NCBI GenBank assembly: GCA_023269545.1
Contig: JAHFTB010000013.1
Span: 1-61,543, forward strand
Source: Verrucomicrobiota bacterium
GTDB lineage: Bacteria > Verrucomicrobiota > Verrucomicrobiia > Chthoniobacterales > Xiphinematobacteraceae
Reading direction: 5' to 3'
Length of the DNA: 61,543 bases
The notes under the pieces: generated by a model
What the model was told of the DNA's origin: nothing
Database searches by the model: none
The model's input: only the letters and a program-made list of their open reading frames with translations
Translations under genes and position numbers: made by a program
In this document: piece by piece, positions 3,736 to 23,398 of the stretch
How positions within the stretch are numbered: the stretch's first letter is position 1
How the letters are laid out: each line of letters begins with the position of its first letter

Positions 3736-3789
3736 GTCAGCATCTTTTCTGAATTATAAGATAAATTACTGGTTTTTGGAGACTTGCAA

Positions 3790-4032
3790 TTAAAGTTTGT
3801 CGCTAAAAAATTCAAAATGTTTCTCTGAATCATTGCTACAGAGAAAAACCTCCAACAAGACATTGCCTTTCTTAAGTTTTCGGACAACAGGGACTCCATA
3901 TATTCACGGAGGAGGCTGCATTAAATCACGATGCCGTCCTATGATATCAGTAATCACTCCATGCGATAGAAAAGCGTCTGCCTTTCCTCAAAAAATCTGC
4001 TCCCAATCATCGTCTAGCTTGGCATTCTCCAC
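3790..4032 (-). pseudogene. short relic frame with two in-frame TGA codons
   Basis: A minus-strand frame opens with GTG inside the 3' end of the methyltransferase gene and runs about 80 codons to TAA. It is interrupted by TGA twice, near 3996 and 3912. The segments between stops look coding (GKADAFLSHGVITDIIGRHR, then YGVPVVRKLKKGN and a Phe-rich acidic end). I read it as the remnant of a small gene, or of a C-terminal part of one, with two nonsense mutations. No family is recognised. A chance open frame cannot be excluded. Confidence 0.35.
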
Positions 4033-4931: not shown

Positions 4932-5082
4932 ATTGCATTAGCAAATTCCAATAAATAATTTTTCTGAATCTCTGCACAAAATGATGATTTTAATTTCAGC
5001 CTCTGTATCGCAGGCAAGCGAAATGTGATCACAGAATGAGCCTCTATAGCGGAATGCAAGCTGGTGAAGTTAAAGAAACCCC

Positions 5083-7105: not shown

Positions 7106-7900
7106 TCAAATGCCATCCGTCTTCAGCAACACACGCCTTGGTCGATTGCAAAATTCAGCTCTGTGGTAAAGATAAACATCGCAGACCGTAGATATAAATA
7201 TCCACATGGTTTCAACCAGATTCCGCCATCGCAGCGAAGAACTGCCACGCAAGCCTGTTTGTCTATATCCGGGTAATTCTAAAAAGGAGGCCCCCTGTCG
7301 CATAAGTTTTGTATTGATTTCAGCAACAATACTGAATCGCCATGCTCGCAATGTTAATCCTTGCAGCCGCTTTGTCGGATAGATGGAAGGTCCATTCAGG
7401 TAACTGACGTAAATATCGAATATGCTAGCGTAGAATAAGGCGAAAAGAGTGGAGAGTGCATTTCGCCAACGGCCTCTGGTTTCCCGATCTAAAAAATAAC
7501 ACATGATCATATCAGCCTTATCTGAGTGCATCATCAATAGGGTAAGGATGGAAACCGGCATGTCATTATCTCCGGGAACAATGAGAAATTTTTCGCCCCT
7601 TGCCTCTTTAATTGCCTCTTTGATCGAAGCTCCGAGTCCTTGATTGGTATTATGATGAAGAATTCGTATGGATGAATCATTGTCGGCAGCGGTATCTGCC
7701 ACTGCGGCTGTCCCATCTGTGCTCCCGTCGTTGATGACGAGAATTTCCACATGAATACCCGGAACTTTCGCCACAGCTTTACCAATAGATTCCAAGGTCT
7801 TGCTCAGATTCTCCGCTTCATTGAAGGCGGGAACCGCCACAGTCACGTCTATTCTGCCTAGGAACTGGGCTTTCTTAAGAGAAGGCATTTCTTCATCCAT
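7106..7900 (-). CDS. GT2 family glycosyltransferase (DPM/GtrB-like)
   Basis: A GT-A fold family 2 enzyme of 264 residues. The nucleotide-binding start is VAVPAFNEAENL at about 21-32, INDGSTDGT lies at 56-64, and a DND metal-binding motif at 111-113 lies in VPGDNDMP. The enzyme probably moves a sugar from a nucleotide donor to a polyprenyl phosphate or an acceptor glycan. Unlike GtrB it lacks two C-terminal membrane helices. It is clearly paralogous to the product of 18488-19327: both end in a W/H-R-N-x-x basic C-terminal region and share a YNG-type loop after the DxD. It lies between two small membrane proteins and a GT-C-like gene. Confidence 0.85.
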   Translation of the reverse strand: MDEEMPSLKKAQFLGRIDVTVAVPAFNEAENLSKTLESIGKAVAKVPGIHVEILVINDGSTDGTAAVADTAADNDSSIRILHHNTNQGLGASIKEAIKEARGEKFLIVPGDNDMPVSILTLLMMHSDKADMIMCYFLDRETRGRWRNALSTLFALFYASIFDIYVSYLNGPSIYPTKRLQGLTLRAWRFSIVAEINTKLMRQGASFLELPGYRQTGLRGSSSLRWRNLVETMWIFISTVCDVYLYHRAEFCNRPRRVLLKTDGI

Positions 7901-9172: not shown

Positions 9173-10021
9173 TTACCAAGGCATCGAATCGCGCAGCGAT
9201 ATGAAAAGGCTTCCGTCGCGATGAGATGTAGGCATGTCGTCAAGAATCAGGACGCTCTGCCAACCGATTTTCTGGGCAAATATTCTCACCCCTAATGAAG
9301 TCAAGTGTTGAAACACACGTTTTGCATTAGCGGCATTTCCGATTTCCACAATCATATCCGTTCCCTTCCAGTCGACCGCAGAGGTGCTACAAATCATGTC
9401 TGCCTCGTGTCCCTCGGCATCCATCTTAATAAGATCCGCCCATTGGAAAAGTGGTTGAACCGCCTGAACCTTTACTCGGAAAGTTTCCTTATCCCCATAA
9501 GAGTCTTTTGCTCCCGCAAGATGGCTGCCGGTCGTATTTCCTAAAACACGCACAAATTCTGCTTCTCCGTCCTCCACAGAGACGGCGGCCTCATGAAGTT
9601 CCACATCCAACGCATGATTCAGGCTGACGTTTCTCCGAAAAATTGACGCATGAGTCGGATCAGGTTCAAATGATCTCACCGAAAAGCCAGACCTATTAAG
9701 CATGAGCGAATGCAGCCCGAGGTTTGCACCAATATCAGCGACACAACGATAGCTGCTTCGATTCCGATTGTAAAAGGCAAAGATGATGAATTCATCTAGG
9801 CCAAATAGGTCGAGGGAATCAATTGCACCCATGCGATGATAGGGAAACTTAAGGACTCCGAAAGGACCAAAAGACACAGGTTGTGGTTCCGGTGAAGAGA
9901 ATTCTTTAGCAATGGATTCTCGAGTCACGCACTTGAGTAACTGATAGGTACTGGACGTGGGAGCATGACAGATCGGTCGTTCGGAAATGGTATTTACAAG
10001 AAGAGTAAATATGTCTGACAT
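9173..10021 (-). CDS. FkbM family methyltransferase
   Basis: A SAM-dependent O-methyltransferase of the FkbM type, 282 residues. Motif I is ADIGANLGLHS at about 95-105, the acidic ribose-binding FEPDP at 118-122, and KMDAEGHE near residue 200 is the conserved FkbM motif. FkbM enzymes methylate hydroxyls on polyketides and, very often, on sugars of surface polysaccharides. The gene starts four bases after the stop of the ThDP enzyme gene, so the two are probably one transcript. The substrate is unknown; a methyl group on the island's glycan is the simplest reading. Confidence 0.85.
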   Translation of the reverse strand: MSDIFTLLVNTISERPICHAPTSSTYQLLKCVTRESIAKEFSSPEPQPVSFGPFGVLKFPYHRMGAIDSLDLFGLDEFIIFAFYNRNRSSYRCVADIGANLGLHSLMLNRSGFSVRSFEPDPTHASIFRRNVSLNHALDVELHEAAVSVEDGEAEFVRVLGNTTGSHLAGAKDSYGDKETFRVKVQAVQPLFQWADLIKMDAEGHEADMICSTSAVDWKGTDMIVEIGNAANAKRVFQHLTSLGVRIFAQKIGWQSVLILDDMPTSHRDGSLFISLRDSMPW

Positions 10022-10025: not shown

Positions 10026-11819
10026 CTATAGATTAGGTTGCAAAGAAACAGCGAGAGGTTTTACGATCATATTAGAAAGGAATTCATCTCGGTTGAGCAA
10101 AGGGCCGGTGTCTTCGTTTGGTCTGCCGAATTGTACTTGGGGAATCACGCGATGAGTGGCCTCAATCTCGAGATTGAGGAAAAATGGACCGGGAGATTCC
10201 AGTGCCTTCGTGAGCTTGTCCTCAATTTCGGAATTTAATGCCACCGTATCGGTGGGAAATCCATAAGCATCCGCCACACGGAGAAAATCCGGAAAAGCCA
10301 ATCCGCCTTCGACGGTTGTTGCATAATATTTGCCATCCAACCACATCTCTTGTGTTTGCTGAACCATGCTATGACCATGGTTGTTGATCAGAAGTATTTT
10401 GATTGGCAAATTATGCCGAATGACAGTGACTAATTCTTGAATATTCATTTGCAAACTCCCATCGCCTGCCACGCACAGCACTCTTTTTCCAGGGAAAGCA
10501 AAAGCAGCTCCAATAGCGGCAGGCAATCCATAACCCATTGGAGTATAATTGAATGCATGAAAAAACCGCTGGCCTTTCTTAAACCGAAATCCTTGCATCA
10601 TCCACGCCAGCGCACATCCTGTTTCGGAGACGATCAATTCATCTTCTTTCGAGAGGCGTGAGAGAATCTCAACCATATAATAGGGGTTGAGAAGCATCTC
10701 CTGACTATATCCTGGCAGGCAAGCCGGATACTTGAGCTTCCATTCTCCAGCCAACTCCAACCATCGACTCACCGATGGGAGTTTTTCTGACGACAGGCGC
10801 TGTAATAATTGAGGCACAAAATCCCGGGCGTCGGCTGCAATGGAAATATCAATATTGCGACCGAGTTTCCGGAATTTTTGGATTTCGGACGGATCGATTT
10901 CCACCATGGCAATCTTTGCTTCTCTTGCGAAAGAGGAGGGAGGACTTCCCGTCGCCTTCGTATCCAGGCGCGAACCTATGGAGAGTATGAAATCCGCATT
11001 TTGGACGACAAAATTTGCGTACCGCACGCCATGTGTCCCAAATCCACCAAAATTACAGGGATGGTCTCCCGGTAACAAATCCACTGCCGCCCATGTCATC
11101 ACCACTGGAATATCGAGTGCGTCCACCAGAACTCGGGTTTGATCTTCAATTTGCGCTAAATGGATTCCCCAACCCAGTATCAAGACGGGCCGGTCTGCGG
11201 TGCGCAAACAGGCAATTACCGAGTCAATATCTTTCGAAAGATCCGCATCTTTCGGAATGCACTCATCCAGGGCAATAAAATGTTCCATCTTTTCAGGATC
11301 AATATCCATCCGTTGAAGATCGTCTGGGATGTCCACTATTACCGGGCCAGGGCGCCCTTTACGTGCTAAATAGAGCGCTTTCTCAAATTCATAAAGTGTC
11401 TTATATGGCTCGTTGACGAGAACCGCGTAATTTGTAATTGTCCGACACATCTCGACAAAGTCAGTTTCCTGAAAGCCAATTTGCCGGACACCGGTATCAC
11501 CTTTAGAGCGAAAGGTGGCGACGTTGCCTGTGAGAAAAAGCATGGGGACGGAATCATAATACGCTGAGGCGATTCCGGTGATTAAATTAGTGGCACCGGG
11601 TCCACTCGTCGCGAGCGCACAGCCAATCTCCCCTGAGGCCCGGCTGTAAGCGTCGGCGGCCATCGCTCCCGCTTGCTCATGTTGAGGGCATATGTATTCC
11701 ACTCCGTCCACTTCGGCAATTGAGTGAATCAAGTGCAGCGATGCACCGCCAGAAATTGCAAATACATGCCGTACTCCGTGATTGGCGAGGAAGCTTGCTA
11801 CGCAATCGGAGAGTTTCAT
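10026..11819 (-). CDS. thiamine-diphosphate enzyme, acetolactate-synthase-like
   Basis: The protein has 597 residues with the three-domain plan of the pyruvate oxidase/acetolactate synthase family. Seen directly: the catalytic Glu48 in CPQHEQAGAMAADAYSR, the ATSGPGATNL turn, a middle domain from about 195 to 345, and the ThDP motif opening GDGS at 452-455 and closing NN at 479-480. No small regulatory subunit (ilvN) is adjacent and the neighbours are sugar-modifying enzymes. A role in transferring a two-carbon unit to a nucleotide sugar, as known for YerE, is therefore more likely than branched-chain amino acid synthesis. It could instead be a sugar- or sulfopyruvate-type decarboxylase. The reaction is an inference. 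Confidence 0.75.
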   Translation of the reverse strand: MKLSDCVASFLANHGVRHVFAISGGASLHLIHSIAEVDGVEYICPQHEQAGAMAADAYSRASGEIGCALATSGPGATNLITGIASAYYDSVPMLFLTGNVATFRSKGDTGVRQIGFQETDFVEMCRTITNYAVLVNEPYKTLYEFEKALYLARKGRPGPVIVDIPDDLQRMDIDPEKMEHFIALDECIPKDADLSKDIDSVIACLRTADRPVLILGWGIHLAQIEDQTRVLVDALDIPVVMTWAAVDLLPGDHPCNFGGFGTHGVRYANFVVQNADFILSIGSRLDTKATGSPPSSFAREAKIAMVEIDPSEIQKFRKLGRNIDISIAADARDFVPQLLQRLSSEKLPSVSRWLELAGEWKLKYPACLPGYSQEMLLNPYYMVEILSRLSKEDELIVSETGCALAWMMQGFRFKKGQRFFHAFNYTPMGYGLPAAIGAAFAFPGKRVLCVAGDGSLQMNIQELVTVIRHNLPIKILLINNHGHSMVQQTQEMWLDGKYYATTVEGGLAFPDFLRVADAYGFPTDTVALNSEIEDKLTKALESPGPFFLNLEIEATHRVIPQVQFGRPNEDTGPLLNRDEFLSNMIVKPLAVSLQPNL

Positions 11820-11843
11820 AAAGAAAATCGTAAGCTATTATTT

Positions 11844-12647
11844 TCAGTCATTTCCAAATCGGCGCAGCTTATATATCTGACTATTTGAAAGCAACTTATC
11901 TTTTAGAGCAAGGCCGCCACTACGCCAGGCGTCTCCGACAAGTGAAATATTTCTTCCTCCTACCACTTCCTTTCCGGCTTTGTGACACCACATTAAGCAG
12001 TCAAAAATCTCATCATGGGAAACGCCGGCCGTTTCATTTGTAAGAAAGCTATTTACCTTCTCAAGATTCATGCCAGCGCGAGAACCTGCGACGATTGTCT
12101 GTTGATGAATGCGAGTCTTTACGATCCCTGGACCAATGATAAATACATTGAGATCCGGATTCTCGTCATCAAGAAGTTCTGTCATCTTAATGAGAAAGAT
12201 CTTGGAAGCACAATATGCGGAATAATTTGTGGCCGGACCATTGCTTCCAGCCCCTGCAAAGAAAGCGACCGAACTCATATTGCCGATGCTCCGAAAGGGA
12301 TACATCGAGTGCAGCACACTCAAAGGAGCAAGACAATTCGCCTGAACAGATCGTTCCCAATCAGAAAAAGATACTTGGGAAAAAGGTCCGATCGGGTCCA
12401 AAACACCGACGGCGCTAATCCAGGTTTCCCATTGAATTTCCATTTTAAGGCACTGTGCCGTTATTTGATCGATTTGACTTTGGTCCAGCACATCGCAAGG
12501 AAATAAAACCCAGTCATTAGGCAGTCCTTCCTTGTAATGAGCCGTACGATATGTACCGACGACCCGCCATCCGGCACGGGTATATCTCAAGCCAAGCTCC
12601 CTCCCAATGTCACTGCTCACCCCAAGAATAAACACACAGGGAGTCAT
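11844..12647 (-). CDS. SDR family oxidoreductase
   Basis: A classical short-chain dehydrogenase/reductase of 267 residues. The cofactor turn GVSSDIG is at 9-15, the catalytic Ser lies in GNMSSVAFF at 125-126, and the active-site pair Y145-x3-K149 lies in YSAYCASK. An Arg at 31-34 in the GTYR segment after the second strand suggests NADP preference. Its start codon overlaps the stop of the epimerase gene by four bases. Beside an acetolactate-synthase-like enzyme it is well placed to reduce the keto group left after a two-carbon transfer, but this is inferred from context. Confidence 0.8.
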   Translation of the reverse strand: MTPCVFILGVSSDIGRELGLRYTRAGWRVVGTYRTAHYKEGLPNDWVLFPCDVLDQSQIDQITAQCLKMEIQWETWISAVGVLDPIGPFSQVSFSDWERSVQANCLAPLSVLHSMYPFRSIGNMSSVAFFAGAGSNGPATNYSAYCASKIFLIKMTELLDDENPDLNVFIIGPGIVKTRIHQQTIVAGSRAGMNLEKVNSFLTNETAGVSHDEIFDCLMWCHKAGKEVVGGRNISLVGDAWRSGGLALKDKLLSNSQIYKLRRFGND

Positions 12648-13675
12648 GGTAATGGTGTGGAGCGCGTCGCATCGCCCTCTAATGTCGAAGACATGTGGTC
12701 GCGAATCGTTTCACTGAGACCATTTCGGATAGGAGTGAATTTAAACTGAGGAAATGCTCTGCGTAACGCAGAGATATGAAATGGTCGATGAACTACTGGG
12801 GTGATAGGGCGCCCTAGGTTATAAAGAAACCGAAATACTTGAGTTGGCTTATAGGGCTTATGGATGATGGGAAGGGTCCGCTTCTGAAAATCAAATTCCA
12901 CAGAGAAAGAGAGGAAATCCTTTATTAACTGCGCGATCTGTAGAAACGACCATGAACGGTCAGCCACTAGATTCAACACGCCTTCACTGCGATAACCGCA
13001 AACTAGCCAGATCAATTGGACGGCATCCTTAATATATAAGTGATTTCGCCTTTCCTCCCCGCGCCCAAAAAGGACAATCTTTTGATCTTTCAGGGCCGAT
13101 GCAATAAATCGATTAGGCCCATAGTTCTTATGGGTATCTCCACACCCATAGAGGCTAGTAGGTCGTAATATGCACAGCGGCAAAGATAATTTTTTTGCCA
13201 AATTCTCAAGCATCATCTCACGCGCAGTGTGCATCAATGCATATAAATCAATTGGCTCCCTTGAGGAATCCTCGTCCAAGGGAATCTTCTGCGCATCGTA
13301 AATAGCATCTGAACTCAGGTAAATTAAATGGGCAGGACAGGAAATCTCTAAGGCGGCACACAAAGTTTCCGCCATACGTAAATTTGCCATCGTGATGCTG
13401 TAATCCTTTCCTTTCTCCGGAGTCAGTGCCGATGTCATCACCACGGTATCGTCGTTATGAAAGATATTGGCGAGGCATGCTACAGATTCAGACTGGGTCA
13501 GATCTGCTTCGCGACTTGATACCAACCGCATTGGGACACCTGAGCATGTCAAAAGATCTTTAAGATGAGAAGAGACGAAGCCATGTGCGCCCAAAATTAC
13601 CACACGTTTCGGATGAATCATAGTTTCGTAGTAGTGACTGAGCATACCGATTGCGGTCCTATTTTCCGACGTCAA
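12644..13675 (-). CDS. NAD-dependent epimerase/dehydratase-like (extended SDR)
   Basis: An extended SDR of 343 residues. The Rossmann turn is GAHGFVSSHL at 29-38 (last Gly of GxxGxxG replaced by Ser), SSDAIYD at 121-127 is the usual serine region, and RPTSLYG marks the substrate side. The active-site pair is altered: Tyr145 is present but the Lys expected four residues on is His149 (YALMH). The enzyme might be a weakened epimerase, a reductase using another base, or a binding protein. A later Met at residue 11 is a possible start. It is translationally coupled to the SDR gene that follows it. Confidence 0.75.
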   Translation of the reverse strand: MTSENRTAIGMLSHYYETMIHPKRVVILGAHGFVSSHLKDLLTCSGVPMRLVSSREADLTQSESVACLANIFHNDDTVVMTSALTPEKGKDYSITMANLRMAETLCAALEISCPAHLIYLSSDAIYDAQKIPLDEDSSREPIDLYALMHTAREMMLENLAKKLSLPLCILRPTSLYGCGDTHKNYGPNRFIASALKDQKIVLFGRGEERRNHLYIKDAVQLIWLVCGYRSEGVLNLVADRSWSFLQIAQLIKDFLSFSVEFDFQKRTLPIIHKPYKPTQVFRFLYNLGRPITPVVHRPFHISALRRAFPQFKFTPIRNGLSETIRDHMSSTLEGDATRSTPLP

Positions 13676-13732
13676 CCATGACGATCAAATGTCGCAGAGG
13701 TATCCATTTTACTGTATCCAATATCATATTTT

Positions 13733-16288
13733 CTACTCTGTTAAATGAAACAGATTTTTCCGAATGAAGAGTCCTCCTAACAAACCCAATAAAAGTGATA
13801 GCATGGGCAGACCCAAGAGCAACCATATGGAAGCCGGCTCGAAGCGAAGCGTGAGTGTTTTCACTCCAGGCGGCATGACAATTGCTTGGACACAGCCATT
13901 GGCCTCGTAAAGACGAGCCCCATTTCCTCCCTCAATCTTCCACGCCGGATGATAGCGTTCATTAAAAACGAGAAGACGAGGCTGATTTGAAGTTTGAACT
14001 TTTATGATTTTCTTAGCCCCCATATCTTGGATTACTATAGGGGATTGGTCCGTAGCAAAATGAGGCAGTCTCTCGGAGGTGGATAGCACTGCAGGAAGGG
14101 ACTCGGGCCGGGAAAAATCCACCTGGCGAACGAGGTCCAAAGCCAACTTGGCAGCCTTGTCTTCCGACTTCTCAGTACGTACCTCACCGGCCCAGAAAAT
14201 ACGTGGAAGCGCAGGAAAGGGGTTTGTCTGTACCCGCTTGTTCAATTCATCTCCATCCATGGGCAGCCCACAATAAAAAGCATTATCTACTTGAACCACC
14301 GAGCTGACCCCAAGTAGAGCCAATTGATTCCATGGAACCTCTCCATATCTAAACGCTATGGTCCGCAGGCTCAAACAATCGTCAGGCCACCCCAGAGAAA
14401 GAAGGTTACGGGGAACACCCGTACCGTATCCGTCAACACACGATACACCGTAAAATGAGCCAAGATAGGATGCAAGAAATGGAGGCACATTCCCCTGCGC
14501 CCGTATGAAAGCGGTGTTTTGTCCTGGCCCACCCACCCTCTCCAATAAATTGGAGCGCATTTTTGCCGTAGGGAGAGAGAAATATGAAGAAGGTGGGAAA
14601 AAGCTATTCCCTAACTCAAAGGGGATTTTTGTCTGCACTTGCCCGCTGTGAAATTGAGCCGCCCCATTTAGGAACGCCTCAGACAACATAAATCCGGCGG
14701 CAAATATTGCACAATAACTGCGAAATGGGCGCCAAAAGAAAATGACCGCCAGTATGAGAAAAAATACAAATATACAGAGAGCAATTTGCCATGCCACCTG
14801 GAGAGGAATGGCAATCGGCTGATTCAATATATGGGAATTCTGAGGAAGGAAACTACTGAGCAAGCAAACCCCTCCTCCTGCCACTCCACCAAGAGCAAAC
14901 AGAGACAGAAACTTGTCCCGATGGATATCTCTTCCTATCAACCGCTGTAAGAACCACGTTACCAAAACCACAATGGGCAGCAGAGCGGTGATACAAAGAC
15001 GACTGTGGGTAAAATCCTTCTTAAGAAAAAGATAGTAGATGATTTCCTGAAAAGGCTTAATTGTTATGACTAGCAGTATTCCGATCACCCAAAGAGCGAA
15101 ATAGCGCATCTCTGCGAGGTCACTCTTCACACAAGACCGTGATTTTGTTATCCAAACAGAAATTCCCGCTACCAGCATGACTAATGCCGCCAGCGTAGAG
15201 CTATGCGTCATCATTCCCTCGGTGATATTAATATGGTTCTTCAAGTCAGAAGCCTCTGTAAAAAAACGGCCGAAAGTTCCATAATGCAGCACTCTCAATA
15301 GTTCATGTGGACCCATACCATGGAAGGAATAGACTTCAGCAAATGTCTTCATTTGGTTCGAGGGGACCTCGCGCTTAAGAAGCTTTAATTCCTGAGCGAC
15401 CACATAAATCCGAGGCATGCAGGCAATCCATACCACCAATGCTGCAAGCGCCGCTAAGACAAGCGTCTTCCATCGACGTGTTCGTACAGCCCAAAAAACG
15501 GTGTAACAGCCGATCGCGATCAGTGCGTAAATGGTTTCTTGCAGAAAGCCAAAGAGGAGCATGAGCCACATAGCTCCAAAGAGGCAAAGCCATCCCAAAC
15601 GCTTCCGTCCCAAGAAAAGGAAACGGACCCCAAGAAATCCGGCGGGAAGAGCTGCTATCACAAGGTAAGAAAGATCGTTTTGTGCAATGCGAAGCATTGA
15701 TGCATAGCTTAACTGATAGAGGCAGCTCCCTGTGGCTGATAACCAAGGAGCAAATCCCATATTTCTCAAGAAGGCAAAGGTGGTGAGACCGGCAACGATA
15801 AAAAACAAACAGGAAAAGATTGCGGTGATCCAAAGAAACCATCTTTCCGGAAAACAGGCCAACACCATAGCCTCCGGATTAAGAGGAACATTCACTAGGA
15901 CCGCCCAGAGATTTGTGCCGAGAAACATGCTGTTCGACCACCCGTAACTGAATCCATCGCGCAGAGCCTGAGTTTGAATCCATAGGTTATTAAGATGGCC
16001 GTTCAATCTATCGAAATTTCCAATAAATAACTTATCCCCAGTGAGGAATGGAAAGAATAGGACTACCGCCAAGATAATCGGCAACCACGCCCAATGGGAA
16101 AACTGGCTATCGGCCTGTGGTTGGGATGTTTCGCTGGAGGTTATCTGATGGTCAAAAACATTCCGTAGGCTCTTGTAAGCATCCAGCAGGATCCTGCCTT
16201 TCGTGGTCAACCAGCCCCGATCATCCTTCATTTTGAAAAAAACTGATCGGAGAGCCCAAGGCAAAAAAAATCCGCGACTTGCCCCCAA
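13733..16288 (-). CDS. YfhO family membrane protein
   Basis: The protein has 851 residues: a cytosolic N-terminus of about 70 residues, then twelve or more membrane helices, an extracytoplasmic domain from about residue 530, and a final helix pair. The near-C-terminal pattern (NERYHPAWKIEGG, then a Pro-Gly-Val turn and LRFEP) is the signature of YfhO-type proteins, which add sugars to lipoteichoic acid or other surface polymers in Firmicutes and resemble GT-C enzymes. A second in-frame Met at 16231 (MKDDRGW) may be the true start, removing 19 residues. In this cluster it probably decorates a surface glycan. Confidence 0.7.
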   Translation of the reverse strand: MGASRGFFLPWALRSVFFKMKDDRGWLTTKGRILLDAYKSLRNVFDHQITSSETSQPQADSQFSHWAWLPIILAVVLFFPFLTGDKLFIGNFDRLNGHLNNLWIQTQALRDGFSYGWSNSMFLGTNLWAVLVNVPLNPEAMVLACFPERWFLWITAIFSCLFFIVAGLTTFAFLRNMGFAPWLSATGSCLYQLSYASMLRIAQNDLSYLVIAALPAGFLGVRFLFLGRKRLGWLCLFGAMWLMLLFGFLQETIYALIAIGCYTVFWAVRTRRWKTLVLAALAALVVWIACMPRIYVVAQELKLLKREVPSNQMKTFAEVYSFHGMGPHELLRVLHYGTFGRFFTEASDLKNHINITEGMMTHSSTLAALVMLVAGISVWITKSRSCVKSDLAEMRYFALWVIGILLVITIKPFQEIIYYLFLKKDFTHSRLCITALLPIVVLVTWFLQRLIGRDIHRDKFLSLFALGGVAGGGVCLLSSFLPQNSHILNQPIAIPLQVAWQIALCIFVFFLILAVIFFWRPFRSYCAIFAAGFMLSEAFLNGAAQFHSGQVQTKIPFELGNSFFPPSSYFSLPTAKMRSNLLERVGGPGQNTAFIRAQGNVPPFLASYLGSFYGVSCVDGYGTGVPRNLLSLGWPDDCLSLRTIAFRYGEVPWNQLALLGVSSVVQVDNAFYCGLPMDGDELNKRVQTNPFPALPRIFWAGEVRTEKSEDKAAKLALDLVRQVDFSRPESLPAVLSTSERLPHFATDQSPIVIQDMGAKKIIKVQTSNQPRLLVFNERYHPAWKIEGGNGARLYEANGCVQAIVMPPGVKTLTLRFEPASIWLLLGLPMLSLLLGLLGGLFIRKNLFHLTE

Positions 16289-16385
16289 GAACCGGAGGGA
16301 TGCAAGAAATGTCTTCTCTTAAGAATTCCCGGTTCCTGGGTAGTATCCTATTGATTCGACAGGCTCTGAGTAACATAAAATACCT

Positions 16386-18425
16386 CTAATGAGTGGTGGA
16401 TGTGGCCAGATTTTCTTGAGATTTAAGAGTCGGATTAAATTCGAAAACAACACGTCCTGTTGTGTCTATGCCATAATAATATTCTCTCAGCTTGATGAAG
16501 GTGAACTCCCGCCTCAAGCCGCTTTGCTGGTCTATCATTATGAGCGAATTTTTATTTCTATCGATTTCAAACCGAACGAGGCGCTGCTTCACCCGCAAAG
16601 TCGAGCGTGTCATGATGTAAAGAGTACCCGACACACCTTTACCAAAATCGGCTATCCACTCAAAGAGATCGCCGTGCAGACGCCATCGTCCGGCTTGGTA
16701 AATAGTGAAAAGTTCATCACTCTTGATCAAGCTTGCGCCTTGTTGCAGCAATTCTTCCCGGTGAGGTAACGATGGACCAAATTTTTGAAATTGCAGGTGA
16801 TTCATCCAATCCTGTTGACGACGGAGGAGATCAAGATAAATGCCTTGACTTTCGAAACCATCGATAAAATCAGGTTCTAACCCAGATTTCTTCGCATGAT
16901 ACATCGCCAGTTCAAAGCCATAGGCCAAGGTGCTTGAAGGGAACGGATAAACATCTAGCTGCCGGGCTCCGTCGATCCCCCTTTGCAGAGAAGCAAGATT
17001 CTTATGATTCAGAGTTGAAATAGAAGCATCTCCACGGCTGAGCACCACATCGTAGTCATGCAAGCGCTGTAGACTTTTTTGATAACCTAAAAATTGACAC
17101 ACAACCAACACGCATAGCACCATTCCACCCCACTGAGCGCGATTCGATAGGGTATTTCTTGGGAAAATGAGTACACCCACTAATAGCGCGTACGGGATGG
17201 AAAATAATTGACCATAATAGTGTGTCTCGATAATGCATGGAGCGACTGGCACGAGAAGCAAGCCATTGATGATTGGCACAAAAATGCAACACAGTGCAAG
17301 CCGCACAGCCAGTGAACGCTCGGATCCCCGGATCCGGATATAGGCTAGTACTGCCCAGGTGAGAATCAGAGCCAAAAGAATAAATTCGCGAATAGGAAGT
17401 CCCTTGTCGAATAGTGGATTAGTATAAGTGACAAATCCATGAACTGCCCGAAAGGGGAGAAGTTGAGCCGTGATACATGTATACAACAATGCGAATGGCT
17501 GCCATTTCTCCAACTGACCACCGGAGAAATGGGAAGATCGAAGTTGCGAGAGTTCAAAATGAGTTTGCGGACCATTTACGACCACATCAAAAAACTTCAA
17601 GGGCAGCTGCCCGTAAGCAATATTCAACGATGGGTAGATATTGACTATTAAAAGGACAAAGATGAGAATCGACCCGGTGCCTGCTATCCACGCGAAGATT
17701 TGCGTTGAAATTTTTGGCAACCGTAAAAAAAATAACGGAAAGAACAAAATTCCAAGCACCAGACCAATGAGAATAGTGGTTTCATCGGTCAACCAAGCTA
17801 AGAGTAAGGTCACTGCCAACGCAGCTGAGACAAGCAAATCAGTCCATAACGATTTCGAGAGATCTCGAGCGTGTTTATAGAGAATCACCGCAAGTAAAAG
17901 AGCCAGCGCGAACCACAAATTCATTAATGCTTTGGCCGGAGCGTAGCGGAGCACGAGTGATTCCAGAGCACCGGGGCTCGCAGCCCAGATCAGAGTTGCA
18001 GCGAAGGCCGCTGCATGCCCCATCCCCATCTTTTTTGCAGAAAGAAAGATGAGCAAAATGGTCAGGGGATATATGATCCAAGATATTCCAAAAGATGAGT
18101 TAAAATGTCCTAAAAAAGTTCCGCGCAATGCGACATTCAACGCCGTCGCAGCAACATTGACAATTCTGGGCCGCGGATCTCCCATAGCCCATGTGTCAAA
18201 CCAATCTGTGGGAGAAGCGTTTAAAAGAAATGGCAGAAACTTTAGGTAATATTCGGCATAGTAGTGCGTGCTATCCGATCGAGATACCAGAATGGCCACA
18301 CCGGATACGGTCAGGATGAAGGCAAGGCTAATAAAAATACCTGTCCATATGTCAGAGCGCCTCTTAGAGGAAACGAACTCTGCCAAAGCTGCTGACCACT
18401 GCCGAAATAAAGTTTTGATATTCAC
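16386..18425 (-). CDS. multi-pass membrane protein, GT-C-like
   Basis: The protein has 679 residues: one helix near 30-50, then a loop with STHYYAEYYLKFLP and DTWAMGDPRPR, about ten more helices up to residue 440, and a soluble end of some 230 residues. Acidic residues in the first outer loop fit the GT-C pattern. The adjacent upstream gene is a GT2 enzyme, repeating the GT2/membrane-protein pairing seen at 5083-7900. I do not recognise a named family. Confidence 0.6.
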   Translation of the reverse strand: MNIKTLFRQWSAALAEFVSSKRRSDIWTGIFISLAFILTVSGVAILVSRSDSTHYYAEYYLKFLPFLLNASPTDWFDTWAMGDPRPRIVNVAATALNVALRGTFLGHFNSSFGISWIIYPLTILLIFLSAKKMGMGHAAAFAATLIWAASPGALESLVLRYAPAKALMNLWFALALLLAVILYKHARDLSKSLWTDLLVSAALAVTLLLAWLTDETTILIGLVLGILFFPLFFLRLPKISTQIFAWIAGTGSILIFVLLIVNIYPSLNIAYGQLPLKFFDVVVNGPQTHFELSQLRSSHFSGGQLEKWQPFALLYTCITAQLLPFRAVHGFVTYTNPLFDKGLPIREFILLALILTWAVLAYIRIRGSERSLAVRLALCCIFVPIINGLLLVPVAPCIIETHYYGQLFSIPYALLVGVLIFPRNTLSNRAQWGGMVLCVLVVCQFLGYQKSLQRLHDYDVVLSRGDASISTLNHKNLASLQRGIDGARQLDVYPFPSSTLAYGFELAMYHAKKSGLEPDFIDGFESQGIYLDLLRRQQDWMNHLQFQKFGPSLPHREELLQQGASLIKSDELFTIYQAGRWRLHGDLFEWIADFGKGVSGTLYIMTRSTLRVKQRLVRFEIDRNKNSLIMIDQQSGLRREFTFIKLREYYYGIDTTGRVVFEFNPTLKSQENLATSTTH

Positions 18426-18487
18426 AAAAATAATTACTTAGTTTTTCCCATAAAATGTCGAATGTCCCGGAAAGCCTGTGTTAAATG

Positions 18488-19327
18488 CTAAATACAATGC
18501 TTCGGATATTCGATCTTCATTTTTAAATCAGGCTGTACCACCACATTTTTATGAGGCTGGACGGATGTGCGGTAGAGAATTCTACGCAATCGTTTTGTCC
18601 CGATTCGAAATAGTGTGTGACCGGTCGAGAGAAAATTTCGAAAATGGAGAGGCGATTTACGTCCGGGGCGATCGAAGTGGAGGCCTTGAACCGGAATCTC
18701 CTTCACAGAAGCCCCCTCCTCAAGAAGTGTGGTAATTAAGTCTGCTTGAAAACCAAATCCATAATTATAGGGCGCCCAACGCATCACATGATATCGCAGA
18801 TAAAGTCCGCAGCCATTGTAATAGCGAATTTTATATCCTCCAATTCTATCCACCAATAATGTCCACAGCTTTGAGATCGATCGACGCAAATAATTCTTGC
18901 CTGGCAATGTGGGATAATAAGGCAAAATCATACTGGCATTACCCATTTCGCGGAGAATTTTAATCATAGTCTCATGAGGCTCGACATTATCCCCACATAC
19001 CAGCCGATAATAACGGCCCCGCCCCAAAAATGCGCTATCCACAAAGGAACGCGCCAGCCCAAAGTTACGTGGATTTCTGTAAATACGGATTTCCATGGCA
19101 GGATGTTTCTGTGCGAAGGTATTCACTATGTCTATCGTCCCATCAGTACATCCGTCATCTACAATGAGGACTTCATAAGAACAGTTGATTTCCGCAAGCG
19201 CATCGCGAATCGTTTCCAATGTACCTAAAATCCGTTCCTCCTCATTGAAGCAGGGGACGAATAGAGTGAGCTCAATACCTTCCCGGCTGTCACATGCCGG
19301 AGGAATGGAAAAATGCTCTGACATCAA
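18488..19327 (-). CDS. GT2 family glycosyltransferase (DPM-like)
   Basis: A 279-residue family 2 glycosyltransferase with LFVPCFNEEERI at about 22-33 and VDDGCTDGT at 56-64. The metal site is unusual, reading CGDNVEP at 111-117 where the paralogue has DND. Soluble, without C-terminal helices. The first two codons overlap the end of the preceding methyltransferase gene (ATGATG). Likely role: loading a sugar onto a polyprenyl phosphate or extending a glycan for the GT-C-like protein encoded just after it. It is related to the GT2 at 7106-7900 by a duplicated framework, not identical. Confidence 0.85.
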   Translation of the reverse strand: MMSEHFSIPPACDSREGIELTLFVPCFNEEERILGTLETIRDALAEINCSYEVLIVDDGCTDGTIDIVNTFAQKHPAMEIRIYRNPRNFGLARSFVDSAFLGRGRYYRLVCGDNVEPHETMIKILREMGNASMILPYYPTLPGKNYLRRSISKLWTLLVDRIGGYKIRYYNGCGLYLRYHVMRWAPYNYGFGFQADLITTLLEEGASVKEIPVQGLHFDRPGRKSPLHFRNFLSTGHTLFRIGTKRLRRILYRTSVQPHKNVVVQPDLKMKIEYPKHCI

Positions 19328-20010
19328 GTCTCCTTACGGGTGCAACCAATAGCTAATTGATAATGTGCCATCGGAGCATATCCTGTGTGAACGACTTCAT
19401 CGTTCATCGAGAACAGAAATATATTGTGAAAAAAATGGCTCATCAACTCACGCATTTGCGGAGCAGTTTTGCAATTTACATGGCCTGTTTTGCTTTGCGG
19501 AGAAGCGTAGATCTGGGATTCAAACGATGGACTGCCTAGTATCAAAATCCCTTGCGGCGCAAGCGATTTGACGATGTTTTTAATAAAAAGGATTTCGTCG
19601 GAAGGCACAATATGTTCGATGACATCCATCGCATAGGCTGCATCAAACTCTCCGGGAAATGGACCGGCAAGCAGATCGTGTTGCCGCACCTCAAACGTCC
19701 AGCGGGAATTCATTCTTTCTTTCACGTCGTCTACAAAGATTTCGTCAAAATCGGTTGCGACAAGAGATTCCACTTCTTGAACCACAAGACGCGTAAAAAA
19801 AGCATCCGCACATCCTACTTCAAGAACACGCTTTTTTCCGCTCAGCATTTTCGCCACGAATTTATATCGAGCTGCGGTAAAGAGCAGATGCTTGGGATCG
19901 TCATGCCAAGCCTGATTAGTCATTAGACCTAGCGTGGTAAGGCCAAGTGTCCGTGCGATCTCGAGGTCCCGTTGATATTGAGGCTCGCGTGTACAATCAG
20001 TCTTTAACAT
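19324..20010 (-). CDS. class I SAM-dependent methyltransferase
   Basis: A 228-residue Methyltransf_23-like protein. Motif I is VLEVGCADAFF at 62-72, the acidic ATDFDEIF follows the second strand, AAYAMDVIEHI is motif II, and LAPQGILILGSPS is motif III. It is coupled to the GT2 that follows by a four-base overlap. Such enzymes in glycan clusters methylate sugar hydroxyls or lipid-linked intermediates; the substrate cannot be read from the sequence. Confidence 0.8.
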   Translation of the reverse strand: MLKTDCTREPQYQRDLEIARTLGLTTLGLMTNQAWHDDPKHLLFTAARYKFVAKMLSGKKRVLEVGCADAFFTRLVVQEVESLVATDFDEIFVDDVKERMNSRWTFEVRQHDLLAGPFPGEFDAAYAMDVIEHIVPSDEILFIKNIVKSLAPQGILILGSPSFESQIYASPQSKTGHVNCKTAPQMRELMSHFFHNIFLFSMNDEVVHTGYAPMAHYQLAIGCTRKET

Positions 20011-20031
20011 CAGAATAAAGCGGTGAAGGTT

Positions 20032-20505
20032 TTAAAATGCTGCATCGGATTTCTTTCTCCATACCCAGAGAAAATTGCTGGCCATACTGATCATAATAGA
20101 AATTCCGACAGCTAATGCCGAGGCCAGCAGGTAATGAATACCCCAGTATATGAAGAGATTTGTTGCAACCATCCAGGCGACAAAACTGCCGGCATTAGCG
20201 ATATGGTATTGCAAAAGGCGCTTCCAAGCAGGACCCACCCCTTTAAATACCCAATGCTCATTTACAAAGAAGCGGAGGATCGTGCACAGTTCCGCCGAAA
20301 TGAGCGTGACCCAGAATACTTTCAATTTGAAGTATTCCACTAAGATGAGCATGAAAATAGAATTGATAAAAATAAAGGCTCCTCCCGCTGCAAGCCATCG
20401 AAATAAAGACGAATGGTAAAAGCCTTGAAGGCTTTTACGTGGGTCTGCGAAAAAATTTCGGAATAAGTCGGACCCTTGTCTGGCTATGGAAGCAAAAGTG
20501 AGCAC
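20032..20505 (-). CDS. GtrA family membrane protein
   Basis: Four membrane helices arranged as in GtrA (residues RWLAAGGAFIFINSIFM, VTLISAELCTILRFFVNEHW, the QYHIANAGSFVAWMV helix and a final one ending in NFLWVWRKK). GtrA proteins are thought to flip polyprenyl-phosphate sugars across the membrane. An open frame extends to 20598 but would overlap the preceding methyltransferase by 89 bases, so I chose the GTG at 20505 just past that gene's stop; a TTG at 20517 is the alternative. It supports a GtrABC-like mode of glycosylation for this island. Confidence 0.75.
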   Translation of the reverse strand: MLTFASIARQGSDLFRNFFADPRKSLQGFYHSSLFRWLAAGGAFIFINSIFMLILVEYFKLKVFWVTLISAELCTILRFFVNEHWVFKGVGPAWKRLLQYHIANAGSFVAWMVATNLFIYWGIHYLLASALAVGISIMISMASNFLWVWRKKSDAAF

Positions 20506-20509
20506 TGTT

Positions 20510-21172
20510 TTATTCAAAATAGACGAGACTGTAATCCCCTCGATATCCGCACTTGGCAAATATCCATTCCCATTCTTTGGGGGTAAAAAAGCACTCACAA
20601 GTGAGTTGCCAGTATAAGAGATTTACTTTTTCTTGTTCAGTACGATAGCCATCCATCACAATGTATTTGTTGTTTTTACCCACGCGTTCAATCTCCTTAA
20701 GAGCGATCTCCAGTTCAGGCAAGCGCATGTTATGCAATGTGTTAATGCTGATGACAAGGTCAAAATATCCGTCAGGATACGGCAATGAAATGGCGTTTCC
20801 GACCTTGAGGAATGGACTCATCTCACTCACGGCATTCTCAATTGCGTAAGAGGAAACATCGATGCCGCTGATGGTTAAATTCGGCACCACCAAGGCGAAA
20901 TCGTGTAAGAGAAAACCTTTGCCACAACCAATATCCAGAATTCGTTGACCTGATTTTAAACCATAATGTTCGATAAGACGCTGAGCGACTGCTTGCCAGC
21001 GACCGTCGTATGTGTAACCGCCATATCCGGTATTTCGACTGCCATCCCAATAGTCGCTATCGAAGCGTTTGGCGATAGTGGCAAAATCCGCTTTATTGCC
21101 TGCTAATACACGGGAAAGATAGTCTCTTTTGGTTGCTTGATGAACCGGCTGAATAAAATCGATGTAAGCCAT
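20510..21172 (-). CDS. class I SAM-dependent methyltransferase
   Basis: A 220-residue methyltransferase. Motif I is ILDIGCGKGFLL at 78-89, ISGIDVSSYAI follows, FDLVISINTLHNM is motif II, and the end carries a KEWEWIF segment. It is similar to enzymes found beside E1-type ThDP genes and sugar genes. It starts six bases after the stop of the E1 beta gene, so it is very likely co-transcribed with the E1 pair. It might methylate a keto acid-derived or sugar intermediate made by that pair, an inference from spacing alone. Confidence 0.8.
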   Translation of the reverse strand: MAYIDFIQPVHQATKRDYLSRVLAGNKADFATIAKRFDSDYWDGSRNTGYGGYTYDGRWQAVAQRLIEHYGLKSGQRILDIGCGKGFLLHDFALVVPNLTISGIDVSSYAIENAVSEMSPFLKVGNAISLPYPDGYFDLVISINTLHNMRLPELEIALKEIERVGKNNKYIVMDGYRTEQEKVNLLYWQLTCECFFTPKEWEWIFAKCGYRGDYSLVYFE

Positions 21173-21178
21173 ACTTTG

Positions 21179-22246
21179 TTATGGATGGACGCTCTCTGCT
21201 TGTGCTGAAAAGGAATCTTCCTGGTTTGTTTGCCAAAGTGATGCGTACTGTTTCCACGAGGATTTTCCTGTCAAAGTGCTTCGCACTGCTTCCACGATAG
21301 TCTCCTCTGTGGGATAATAGAGTTTTTCCAGCGTCGCACTCATTGGAGTATGGCTATTCGGCAGGGCGACACGCACGGGATTAGCTTTAAGTTTGTCTCC
21401 CAGATTTTCCACCACGCAAGTAATGATCTCCCCGGCGGCTCCAAATGATTGCCAGGCTGGGTCTGCTACAATGAGACGTTTTGTTTTAAAGGCGGAATCG
21501 CAAATTGTTTTGCGATCGAGGGGAGCTAATGTTCTTGGATCCACTACTTCGACATCCACTCCTTCTTTTTCGAGAATCGCAGCTGCACGCAAAGCAAGCG
21601 GAACCATATAGCCGATAGCTACAATCGTGGCATCTTTGCCCTCTCTTCTTATGGCTGCACGTCCAAAGTGAACGCGGTAAGGTTCCTCGGGCACATGGTC
21701 CGTCATCGAGTACAATCCGCGACCTTCCACGAAAATGGCCGGTGATTGGCTGAACAAACTTTCCAAAAGTAAGCCCTTGGCATCAAATGCGGTTGCCGGC
21801 ATAGCGACGCGCAGCCCAGGTAAATGAGCAAACCATGAGTGCAAGCTTTTTGAATGCTGTGGTCCTTGGCCCCACCCTTTACCCACAATGGTCCGAATCG
21901 TCACTGGCATGGAGGATTTGCCATTGGACTTAAATAGCCAAAGTGCGAGCCAATTGACGATAGCATCCAGGGAATAGATCATGAAATCGAGACGCTGGTG
22001 GATAATAAGTGGACGCAGCCCTGTGAGTGCGGCTCCCATGGCAGTGGCCGTCATGAGATTTTCTGCCACAGGAAAATCCTGTACTCGGTCGGTACCATAT
22101 TTGTCGACCAACCCAGTGGTCGTTCCAAAAATTCCGGATTGTGTATCAGCCAATTGTCCCAACACGATCACATCCGAACACAATGCCATGGCTTGATCCG
22201 TGGCTTCGAGAATTGCCTTTTGATAAGAAAGTTGCCGGTCTTGCAT
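21179..22246 (-). CDS. 2-oxo acid dehydrogenase E1 beta-type subunit
   Basis: A transketolase-like pyrimidine-binding protein of 355 residues. Glu62 in FPVAENLMTATAMG is the residue that contacts the ThDP aminopyrimidine. The second half holds the transketolase C-terminal domain (DATIVAIGYMVPLALRAA and VEVVDPRTLAPLD). It pairs with the alpha subunit gene upstream, separated by 30 bases. No E2 lipoyl acyltransferase or E3 gene lies nearby, so a complete dehydrogenase complex is not encoded here. E1 alpha/beta pairs of this kind (for example AviB1/AviB2) are known to transfer two-carbon units in sugar biosynthesis; I favour that. Confidence 0.85.
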   Translation of the reverse strand: MQDRQLSYQKAILEATDQAMALCSDVIVLGQLADTQSGIFGTTTGLVDKYGTDRVQDFPVAENLMTATAMGAALTGLRPLIIHQRLDFMIYSLDAIVNWLALWLFKSNGKSSMPVTIRTIVGKGWGQGPQHSKSLHSWFAHLPGLRVAMPATAFDAKGLLLESLFSQSPAIFVEGRGLYSMTDHVPEEPYRVHFGRAAIRREGKDATIVAIGYMVPLALRAAAILEKEGVDVEVVDPRTLAPLDRKTICDSAFKTKRLIVADPAWQSFGAAGEIITCVVENLGDKLKANPVRVALPNSHTPMSATLEKLYYPTEETIVEAVRSTLTGKSSWKQYASLWQTNQEDSFSAQAESVHP

Positions 22247-22276
22247 ATTTTTAAGTCTAATAATAGAGGGAGATGT

Positions 22277-23398
22277 TTAATAGGGGCCTAGTTTTGCCTC
22301 TTCCTGGTACTGGTCGTATTTTCCTTGCTCCGCTTCTTTAAGGAGTTGATCTGCTAGCGGACTCGAGAGTGCAAAGTTGCTGCGGTGCCAGTCGATGGAT
22401 TGCGGAAAGGGACTTTCTTTTGCAAACTGGAAATTACTCGCAATTTCTTCCGCAATTTCAGCTTCCATCTGATGGATGATTTCGTCATCCACCCAGCCGA
22501 TTCCACGCAATCTTTCTTCCAAAAGGACGATGGGACAGTTTGCCTTCCAAAATGCTATTTCCTCTGCGCTCCGATAACGGTTGACACCGTCATCCTCAGG
22601 TCCCACATGGCTGTTCCATCGGTATGTATAAGCCTCGATCAAAGCCGGACCATCTCCATTCCTCAGTTTATCGACTTCTTGAGAAATAGTTTGATAGGCA
22701 AGAACGACATCATTCCCGAAAATCTGTGTGGCTCGAACTCCAAATGGACGGACACGCTCACAGATATTATCCCATTGTTGACGTTTCAACTGGTCGGAGA
22801 AAGTCGCATACCTGTTATTTTCAATCATAAAAAGCATCGGGAGTCTTTGCTTACCCGCAAAGGCCACCGCTTCCCAAAATGCCCCTTCATCAGTCGCTCC
22901 TTCTCCGAATCCTGATATGCTGATTTGCCGACTCTTTCTCCACCGAAAGCCAAAAGCAGCCCCAACTCCTATGGTGATTGCACCGGCGAGGATAGCGCCG
23001 CTAAAGAAGCTCGATTCACAATGAGAAATGTCCTGTGAGCCGGCTTTACCACCATTTGCGCCCGTCTTCCGCCCATAAATTTCGGCAAAAAGCTCTCGCA
23101 GCGGAGCACCTTTGGCAAAATAATATCCATGCGAACGATGGTGACTGAACATATAGTCGTCGAAGCGGACCACTTGTGAAAGCGCTGCGGGAATAGATTC
23201 CTGGCCAATGCAAAAATGGATCGGACAGCGCATTTCGTCGGCTGGATGGTATTCTGCGTGAAGCGCTTCTTCCATACGCCGGAGTCGAAGCATTTGCCGC
23301 AGAAGAGTGCGAGCTAGCGAGGGAGAGATTCCATCGAGTGAAAGGCCGATATAGCGGCCCATCTGAGTAATCGTACGATGACTTAATGGTTCAGTCAT
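22277..23398 (-). CDS. 2-oxo acid dehydrogenase E1 alpha-type subunit
   Basis: A ThDP-dependent E1 alpha subunit of 373 residues. The ThDP-binding motif is present as GFGEGATDEG at 163-172 (GEG in place of GDG, as in some branched-chain E1s) with the closing ENN at 193-195. HFCIGQESIPAAL at 61-73 and HHRSHGYYFAKG near 86-97 are standard E1 alpha segments. It is the first gene of the minus-strand glycan island, downstream of a 402-base non-coding stretch, and should be made together with the beta subunit. Cofactor use is clear; the physiological acceptor is not. Confidence 0.85.
   Translation of the reverse strand: MTEPLSHRTITQMGRYIGLSLDGISPSLARTLLRQMLRLRRMEEALHAEYHPADEMRCPIHFCIGQESIPAALSQVVRFDDYMFSHHRSHGYYFAKGAPLRELFAEIYGRKTGANGGKAGSQDISHCESSFFSGAILAGAITIGVGAAFGFRWRKSRQISISGFGEGATDEGAFWEAVAFAGKQRLPMLFMIENNRYATFSDQLKRQQWDNICERVRPFGVRATQIFGNDVVLAYQTISQEVDKLRNGDGPALIEAYTYRWNSHVGPEDDGVNRYRSAEEIAFWKANCPIVLLEERLRGIGWVDDEIIHQMEAEIAEEIASNFQFAKESPFPQSIDWHRSNFALSSPLADQLLKEAEQGKYDQYQEEAKLGPY

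What the first reader, a model, noticed from the sequence alone, without database searches (positions are those of the whole stretch)
10026..23398. Two separate thiamine-diphosphate systems in one glycan island
An acetolactate-synthase-like enzyme and an E1 alpha/beta pair without E2/E3 sit among methyltransferases, SDRs and glycosyltransferases. Known precedents (YerE; AviB1/AviB2) attach two-carbon branches to sugars. Having both types in one cluster suggests an unusual, perhaps doubly branched, sugar.
Basis: partly seen in the sequence, partly recalled or inferred. Interest (0 to 1): 0.65.

Follow-up and report, generated by a model that had tools for sequence, protein, structure and literature searches.

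The report
Twin thiamine enzymes in sugar pathway
Two unrelated vitamin-B1 enzymes, each of a type known to join small carbon units onto sugars, sit in one bacterial surface-sugar island, and the same pair recurs beside the same sugar-building genes in bacteria of many phyla, which points to a widespread, uncharacterised route to an unusual carbon-branched surface sugar.

Summary
An IlvB-like ThDP enzyme (10026-11819) and an E1 alpha/beta pair (22277-23398, 21179-22246), all on the minus strand, lie among glycosyltransferases, methyltransferases and SDRs, with no E2/E3 or ilvN. The genome has its own AHAS, ilvN and other E1/E2 systems elsewhere. The IlvB-like enzyme is YerE-like: its nearest solved structure is JanthE, the AHAS acceptor Trp is Thr, and it falls outside AHAS. 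The E1 pair belongs to a fully supported clade of E1s without E2.

Going further, the two systems form a recurring module. Twenty-two loci, from Verrucomicrobiota, Chlamydiota, Omnitrophota, Acidobacteriota, Actinomycetota and Pseudomonadota, carry YerE-like + E1 alpha/beta + one methyltransferase + one epimerase-like SDR (22/22). Most also carry GmhA-like, HldE-like, 4,6-dehydratase-like and Zn-ADH genes. In the window's genome the GmhA-GmhB-transaldolase-HldE half sits on another contig.

Best reading: two carboligations in one nucleotide-sugar pathway producing a higher-carbon C-branched envelope sugar. 'Doubly branched' is plausible but unproven. Most Rhodopseudomonas genomes carry the module, and R. 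palustris CGA009 has a known C4-branched O-antigen sugar related to C12 caryophyllose, which makes the idea testable.

The parts
22277..23398 (-). E1 alpha subunit (373 aa) of a ThDP E1 without E2; signature TYRWNSHVGPEDDG in place of the GHSxxD-type loop of complex E1s
   Evidence: PF00676 2.7e-52; free-E1 clade 100/100; motif; 48% to G229
21179..22246 (-). E1 beta subunit (355 aa), partner of the alpha subunit
   Evidence: PF02779/PF02780; free-E1 clade of 31 rows 100/100, sister to G229; 30 bp gap to alpha
20510..21172 (-). class I SAM methyltransferase 'MTc', present in all 22 double-ThDP loci
   Evidence: PF13847; 22/22
20032..20598 (-). GtrA-like membrane protein (putative polyprenyl-P-sugar flippase); listed start overlaps MTc, true start probably downstream
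   Evidence: PF04138 4.3e-12
19324..20010 (-). class I SAM methyltransferase 'MTb'; stands in place of or beside FkbM in several module loci
   Evidence: PF13649/PF08241; 5 of 22 loci
18488..19327 (-). GT2 glycosyltransferase (dolichyl-P-mannose-synthase-like by context)
   Evidence: PF00535
16386..18425 (-). multi-TM protein, ~8 TM, no Pfam match; possible GT-C glycosyltransferase (inferred)
   Evidence: hydropathy; no Pfam
13733..16288 (-). multi-TM protein, ~11 TM, YfhO-like C-terminus by eye; possible GT-C glycosyltransferase (inferred)
   Evidence: hydropathy; no Pfam
12644..13675 (-). NAD-dependent epimerase/dehydratase-like SDR; 36% to the last gene of the C55 nucleotide-sugar operon
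   Evidence: PF01370 5e-27; paralogue
11844..12647 (-). short-chain dehydrogenase, candidate reductase of the acyl branch
   Evidence: PF00106 1.3e-17; module partner
10026..11819 (-). YerE-like ThDP carboligase (597 aa), IlvB fold, AHAS acceptor Trp replaced by Thr, GDG and catalytic Glu kept
9173..10021 (-). FkbM-family methyltransferase, near the YerE-like gene in most module loci
   Evidence: PF05050 3.9e-06; 13 of 22 loci
7106..7900 (-). second GT2 glycosyltransferase, preceded by two small TM ORFs (7914-8474, 8455-8952)
   Evidence: PF00535 1.4e-21; similar genes near other YerE-like genes
631..7038 (-). rest of the island: two multi-TM proteins (631-3735, 5083-7038) and a methyltransferase (4014-4931)

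Best explanation
The island holds the carboligation and transfer half of a conserved nucleotide-sugar pathway that makes a higher-carbon, C-branched envelope sugar. SHOWN: a YerE-like enzyme and an E2-free E1 alpha/beta pair are encoded together with a conserved methyltransferase and SDRs; the same set recurs across phyla, usually beside a GmhA-like isomerase, an HldE-like kinase/nucleotidyltransferase, a 4,6-dehydratase-like enzyme, an epimerase-like SDR and a Zn-alcohol dehydrogenase; in this genome a GmhA - GmhB - transaldolase - SDR - epimerase - HldE - oxidoreductase - NDP-sugar dehydrogenase operon, collinear with module loci, lies on another contig (C55). INFERRED: a long-chain ketose phosphate is made, isomerised, activated to an NDP-sugar and oxidised to a keto or aldehydo sugar. 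The E1 pair decarboxylates pyruvate and transfers an acetyl anion to one carbonyl, and the YerE-like enzyme decarboxylates a 2-oxo acid and adds its acyl group to another carbonyl, giving a tertiary alcohol. SDRs reduce the acyl ketone(s), MTc/FkbM/MTb O-methylate, and GT2/GtrA/multi-TM proteins move the sugar through a polyprenyl phosphate to the outer envelope. Both carboligations are proposed to act on one sugar.
For: YerE-like identity: JanthE (8rph) is best by sequence, 386 bits against 306 for 5ahk and 300 for AHAS, and best by structure, Z 43.3 against 40.7 for AHAS. The score on the AHAS equivalog model is below cut-off (443.5 < 538.35). The Trp464 column is W only in AHAS and the genome's own IlvB, T in window and JanthE. 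The tree splits AHAS from the YerE-like rows with 99% support. Free E1: clades of 31 (beta) and 33 (alpha) rows at 100/100 without any sampled complex E1, and a loop motif absent from complex E1s. Linkage: 22 double-ThDP loci, MTc 22/22, epimerase-like SDR 22/22, GmhA-like 19, dehydratase with Glu motif 18, Zn-ADH 18, HldE-like 17; label changes 8 against 21.3 shuffled; E1 lies on the opposite strand in L088 and L089, so the association survives rearrangement. Other half of the pathway: C55 operon collinear with L077 and, in part, L065, both double-ThDP loci, at 38-68% identity. Precedent: paulomycin Pau11/12 like AviB1/B2 followed by a ketoreductase (PMC4425429); YerE in yersiniose (PMC12247030).
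Against: No biochemistry. The module's acid-motif dehydratase has no clear orthologue in the window's genome: the C55 copy has SSSCYG, without the acid, and the best other match is RmlB-like at ~31%. The two halves are on different contigs, so their joint use is inferred. The window's E1 pair groups with G229, in which only an AHAS-like hit (35%) to the YerE-like query was found, so the E1 module can work without it. JanthE pocket residues V121, Y268, P293, Y297 are not conserved in the window enzyme. HldE-like and GmhA-like proteins score far below the curated heptose cut-offs, so chain length is unknown.
Confidence: 0.55

Rival explanations
1. Two different branched sugars: each ThDP system makes its own sugar of the same glycan, and the genes travel together because the glycan needs both.
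For: The modules are separable: the E1 pair with GmhA/HldE-like genes occurs without YerE-like in G229 and G288, and beside HldE- and SIS-domain genes in Azospirillum L143; YerE-like + SDR + FkbM/MTb occurs without E1 in the fetched flanks of L064, L086, L087. The YerE and E1 trees are not congruent.
Against: MTc and the epimerase-like SDR are present in 22/22 double loci, and the Rhodopseudomonas set is a tight 11-gene run with one methyltransferase, which suits one product better.
Confidence: 0.22
2. Relay: the E1 pair does not branch the sugar but builds a long hydroxylated chain (1-deoxyketose or 2-oxo acid) that the YerE-like enzyme then attaches to a 4-keto-6-deoxyhexose, giving a single long branch as in caryophyllose.
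For: Caryophyllose is 3,6-dideoxy-4-C-(1,3,4,5-tetrahydroxyhexyl)-hexopyranose (PMC5706390) and R. palustris CGA009 has a 3-O-methyl relative of the caryophyllose-like sugar (PMC9912281); some YerE-like enzymes prefer long hydroxylated 2-oxo acids (PMC12247030); 10 of 16 Rhodopseudomonas genomes hold the module YerE-like gene as their only match at E <= 1e-85.
Against: No aldolase making a long 2-oxo acid was seen among the conserved genes; HldE/GmhA-like genes suggest the long chain is nucleotide-activated rather than a free acid.
Confidence: 0.15
3. Housekeeping paralogues: the IlvB-like enzyme is an AHAS isozyme and the E1 pair an accessory pyruvate or acetoin dehydrogenase E1 using an E2 elsewhere, lodged in the island by chance.
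For: The folds are shared with AHAS and E1, and the free-E1 beta clade is sister to acetoin-dehydrogenase-type E1s.
Against: Loss of the AHAS Trp, tree positions, absence of an orphan E2, separate AHAS/ilvN and other E1/E2 systems in the genome, and recurrence across phyla.
Confidence: 0.03

Closest known systems
YerE-like ThDP carboligases (YerE yersiniose; JanthE; PpYerE; ErwE; RhopE proposed for the R. palustris sugar)
   Same: IlvB fold, JanthE the nearest solved structure, AHAS acceptor Trp lost, polysaccharide gene context with an SDR reductase (PMC12247030)
   Different: 37% identical to JanthE over the aligned part, JanthE pocket residues not kept, canonical GDG instead of CDG; repeatedly paired with an E1 alpha/beta system and a GmhA/HldE-like module
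alpha-keto acid dehydrogenase 2 carboligases (AviB1/AviB2, Pau11/Pau12, KbDH)
   Same: E1 alpha/beta without E2/E3, sugar-modifying context, nearby reductases and methyltransferases (PMC4425429, PMC12247030)
   Different: Named members could not be compared directly; here they sit in envelope-glycan loci of several phyla and next to a second, unrelated ThDP carboligase
ADP/GDP-heptose pathway (GmhA-GmhB-HldE)
   Same: GmhA-, GmhB- and HldE-like genes in the companion C55 operon; GmhA- and HldE-like genes in most module loci
   Different: All score well below the curated equivalog cut-offs; transaldolase, NDP-sugar dehydrogenase and Gfo/Idh oxidoreductase are added, so the substrate may not be the usual heptose
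Bradyrhizose gene cluster (11 genes with a 4,6-dehydratase-like gdh; PMC4743980)
   Same: Size of the cluster and a dehydratase-like gene resemble the 11-gene Rhodopseudomonas module
   Different: Gene content of the Bradyrhizobium cluster was not available; the link is a guess

Membership tests
YerE-like carboligase | Closest solved relative is a YerE-like enzyme, not AHAS | tested here: met
   JanthE first by phmmer (386 vs ~300 bits for AHAS) and by structure (Z 43.3 vs 40.7)
YerE-like carboligase | Phylogenetic position outside AHAS and together with characterised YerE-like enzymes | tested here: met
   AHAS and own IlvB split from the rest at 99; window shares a 100-supported 69-row group with JanthE (quick search, JanthE on a long branch)
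YerE-like carboligase | Uses a ketone (4-keto sugar) as acceptor | not testable with these tools
   Needs an enzyme assay; JanthE pocket residues are not conserved
Acetohydroxyacid synthase (IlvB) | Acceptor-site Trp (E. coli AHAS II W464), equivalog score, ilvN partner nearby | tested here: not met
   Thr at the Trp column; TIGR00118 443.5 below cut-off 538.35; ilvN only at C36
PDH/BCKDH/acetoin dehydrogenase complex E1 | E2 (2-oxoacid_dh) linked or otherwise unassigned in the genome; groups with complex E1s | tested here: not met
   No E2 in island; the E2s are assigned to C10/C31, C52 and C8 systems; separate clade 100/100; TIGR03182 226.5 bits below cut-off 393.85
AviB1/AviB2-type (aKADH2) carboligase | Two-subunit E1 without E2/E3 in a sugar pathway | tested here: met
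   (context only; function not tested)
AviB1/AviB2-type (aKADH2) carboligase | Groups with AviB1/B2, Pau11/12 or KbDH in a tree | not tested
   Those sequences are not in the collections; unassigned Streptomyces plasmid pairs L142/L146 do fall in the same clade
Canonical heptose pathway | GmhA, GmhB, HldE reach the curated scores | tested here: not met
   C55 proteins: gmhA 61.1 vs 209.45, HldE 133.7 vs 521, GmhB_yaeD 65.7 vs 149.6
NDP-sugar 4,6-dehydratase in the module | Acid in the (T/S)xE(V/L)YG motif with a YxxxK/R | tested here: inconclusive
   Present in most foreign module loci (TPEVYG, TSELYG) but the window genome's C55 copy has SSSCYG

The most novel reading that the evidence does not exclude
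A cross-phylum nucleotide-sugar pathway in which two unrelated ThDP carboligases each add a C2 unit to one activated long-chain sugar (for instance 8 + 2 + 2 carbons), giving doubly acyl-extended sugars such as the C4-branched O-antigen sugar of Rhodopseudomonas palustris, and possibly related to bradyrhizose.
Probability: 0.25. Interest if true: 0.8.

Novelty: new variant of a known kind. Interest (0 to 1): 0.6.

Why it matters
Each enzyme type is known to build C-branched sugars alone, but in the papers I could read no pathway uses both. A recurring module with both, across many phyla and in most Rhodopseudomonas genomes, offers a candidate gene set for caryophyllose-like or other higher-carbon surface sugars whose biosynthesis is open, and makes it testable in a tractable laboratory organism. 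It would also supply two sets of candidate ketone-accepting carboligases, wanted for making tertiary alcohols.

Tried and rejected
AviB1/B2, KbDH and ErwE sequences and key papers (Krug 2024, Lanza 2024, Steitz 2022, Rombouts 2009) are not held. A plasmid search with the YerE-like protein found only AHAS-like matches of 32-35%. The island is not of odd composition: GC 45-48% like the rest of the window. Promoter scan no better than shuffles. The first idea that the C55 'GMD1' gene is the 4,6-dehydratase was dropped after the motif check. G288 and G229 as full relatives rejected: no YerE-like gene, only AHAS-like hits. Louvain clustering of neighbours split families and was replaced by profile assignment.
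Full report
What is there. All claimed genes are present at the stated coordinates on the minus strand. 10026-11819 encodes a 597-aa IlvB-fold protein with the N, M and C TPP-enzyme domains; 22277-23398 and 21179-22246 encode E1 alpha and E1 beta. They bracket an MTc methyltransferase, GtrA, MTb methyltransferase, GT2, two multi-TM proteins and two SDRs, and are followed by an FkbM methyltransferase. E1 alpha to FkbM is 12 co-directional genes with gaps of at most 97 bp. Next to the island lie tsf, rpsB, rpoC and rpoB (identified by reading the sequence and, for tsf, Pfam) and other housekeeping DNA.

Housekeeping copies are elsewhere. The genome has three other E1s (C10, C52, C8) and other ThDP decarboxylase-fold enzymes at C30, C8 and C42. 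E2 domains occur at C31, C8 and C52 only. The C10 end carries E2 residues 1-79 and the C31 end residues 167-451, so these are likely the two ends of one PDH E2 broken by a contig gap. No E2 is left over for the island pair. The C30 enzyme has the AHAS Trp and groups with plant AHAS, and ilvN is at C36. The C8 enzyme resembles IolD (my reading of its motif).

The IlvB-like enzyme. Its nearest solved structure is JanthE (8rph), 386 bits; next are 5ahk (306; Pseudomonas protegens, which I take from my own knowledge to be PpYerE) and plant AHAS (300). An AlphaFold model (pLDDT 79.5) is closest to JanthE, Z 43.3 at 3.3 A over 572 residues, against 40.7 for AHAS. The AHAS acceptor tryptophan is Thr in the window, in JanthE and in all 24 E1-linked rows (window included); W occurs only in the two AHAS rows. 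In the tree, AHAS is separated by a branch of 2.1 with support 99. JanthE is one of the YerE-like enzymes that join 2-oxo acids to ketones (PMC12188165, PMC12247030). Its pocket residues are not kept in the window, so substrates may differ.

The E1 pair. In trees built from window, relatives, annotated complex E1s and (for beta) PDB chains, the island pair falls in a clade of E2-free E1s with 100/100 support (beta 31 rows, branch 0.49; alpha 33 rows, branch 0.80). All sampled E1s with a linked E2 lie outside. The clade carries a TYRWxEHCGPNxDxxxGYR-type motif (window TYRWNSHVGPEDDGVNRYR) where complex E1s have GHSxxD or similar. It holds E1 pairs from glycan loci on Azospirillum oryzae and Solidesulfovibrio plasmids, another Azospirillum plasmid, and Streptomyces plasmids. 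AviB1/B2 could not be included.

A recurring module. The E1 alpha query found only a few free-type pairs in 387 genomes of the phylum. Six of these (G078, G325, G143, G216, G091, G341) have a YerE-like gene within about 20 kb. A scan with the YerE-like alignment gave 80 loci from many phyla, and 18 have E1 beta in the flanks. Over 22 distinct double loci, MTc and an epimerase-like SDR are present in 22, GmhA-like SIS in 19, an acid-motif dehydratase in 18, Zn-ADH in 18, HldE-like in 17, the SDR in 16, FkbM in 13 (some counts are low because flanks end or the motif search was strict). E1 presence is strongly clustered on the YerE tree: 8 changes against 21.3 in shuffles. It also appears in a second, separate sub-clade (L110, L053, L055). 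The clade-versus-rest contrast (16/22 against 2/58, p = 3.5e-10) was defined after the fact and ignores relatedness, so it is descriptive. E1 can lie on the opposite strand (L088, L089), so the link is not just inherited gene order.

The missing half. Most module loci carry GmhA- and HldE-like genes; the window does not. In the same genome, contig C55 (about 65-74 kb) has a nine-gene operon: GmhA-like, GmhB-like, transaldolase, epimerase-like SDR, a second SDR (SSSCYG), HldE-like, Gfo/Idh oxidoreductase, NDP-sugar dehydrogenase, epimerase. It is collinear with a double-ThDP locus in a chlamydia (L077) and, in its middle genes, with one in an acidobacterium (L065), at 38-68% identity. Its last gene is a 36% paralogue of the window SDR at 12644-13675. 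This is the main reason to think the island is one half of a split pathway. A weakness: the module's Glu-motif dehydratase has no clear orthologue here.

A lead to a known sugar. Rhodopseudomonas sp. BR0M22 holds the module as an 11-gene run with one methyltransferase. Ten of 16 genomes of the genus have the YerE-like gene, one match each. R. palustris CGA009 makes an O-antigen of a C4-branched sugar, a 3-O-methyl derivative of the caryophyllose-like sugar (Marchetti 2018, as cited in PMC9912281). A review assigns C-branching in R. palustris to a putative ThDP enzyme, RhopE (PMC12247030). Whether CGA009 carries the module and whether RhopE is this gene were not tested. Caryophyllose is C12 (PMC7821131, PMC5706390). 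Two readings fit: an octose-type chain with two C2 additions (8 + 2 + 2), or a hexose with one C6 branch whose donor the E1 pair helps to make. The reported pyranose ring, which puts the methyl on ring carbon C5, favours the second for caryophyllose itself.

Verdict. Their use in one pathway is supported by recurrence. 'Doubly branched' remains one of three readings. I file this as a new variant of a known kind, interest 0.6.

Noticed in passing
631-8952, 13733-18425, 18488-20598: The island has two GT2s, a GtrA and four large multi-TM proteins without Pfam matches, one with a YfhO-like C-terminus: probably a polyprenyl-phosphate-sugar/flippase/GT-C transfer system.
   Followed up: partly
7106-8952: GT2 plus two small TM ORFs (186 and 165 aa) recur together, or in part, near YerE-like genes of other phyla (L079, L096, L105, L109), an unnamed trio.
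   Followed up: no
23801-24649: A 282-aa plus-strand ORF without Pfam match, divergent from the island, sits between E1 alpha and tsf.
   Followed up: no
whole genome (G000) versus G036, G057: Two congeners have 0.9 Mb single-contig genomes and only AHAS-like hits (31-32%) for the YerE-like query; the island gene is absent there, by loss or by later gain.
   Followed up: partly
L138 and 10 Rhodopseudomonas genomes: The 11-gene module has the same gene number as the uncharacterised bradyrhizose cluster of photosynthetic Bradyrhizobium (PMC4743980); gene content was not compared.
   Followed up: no
L142, L146: Streptomyces plasmid E1 pairs without E2, L142 beside a condensation-domain protein and gamma-butyrolactone regulators, fall in the free-E1 clade, so this E1 class may not be limited to sugars.
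   Followed up: no
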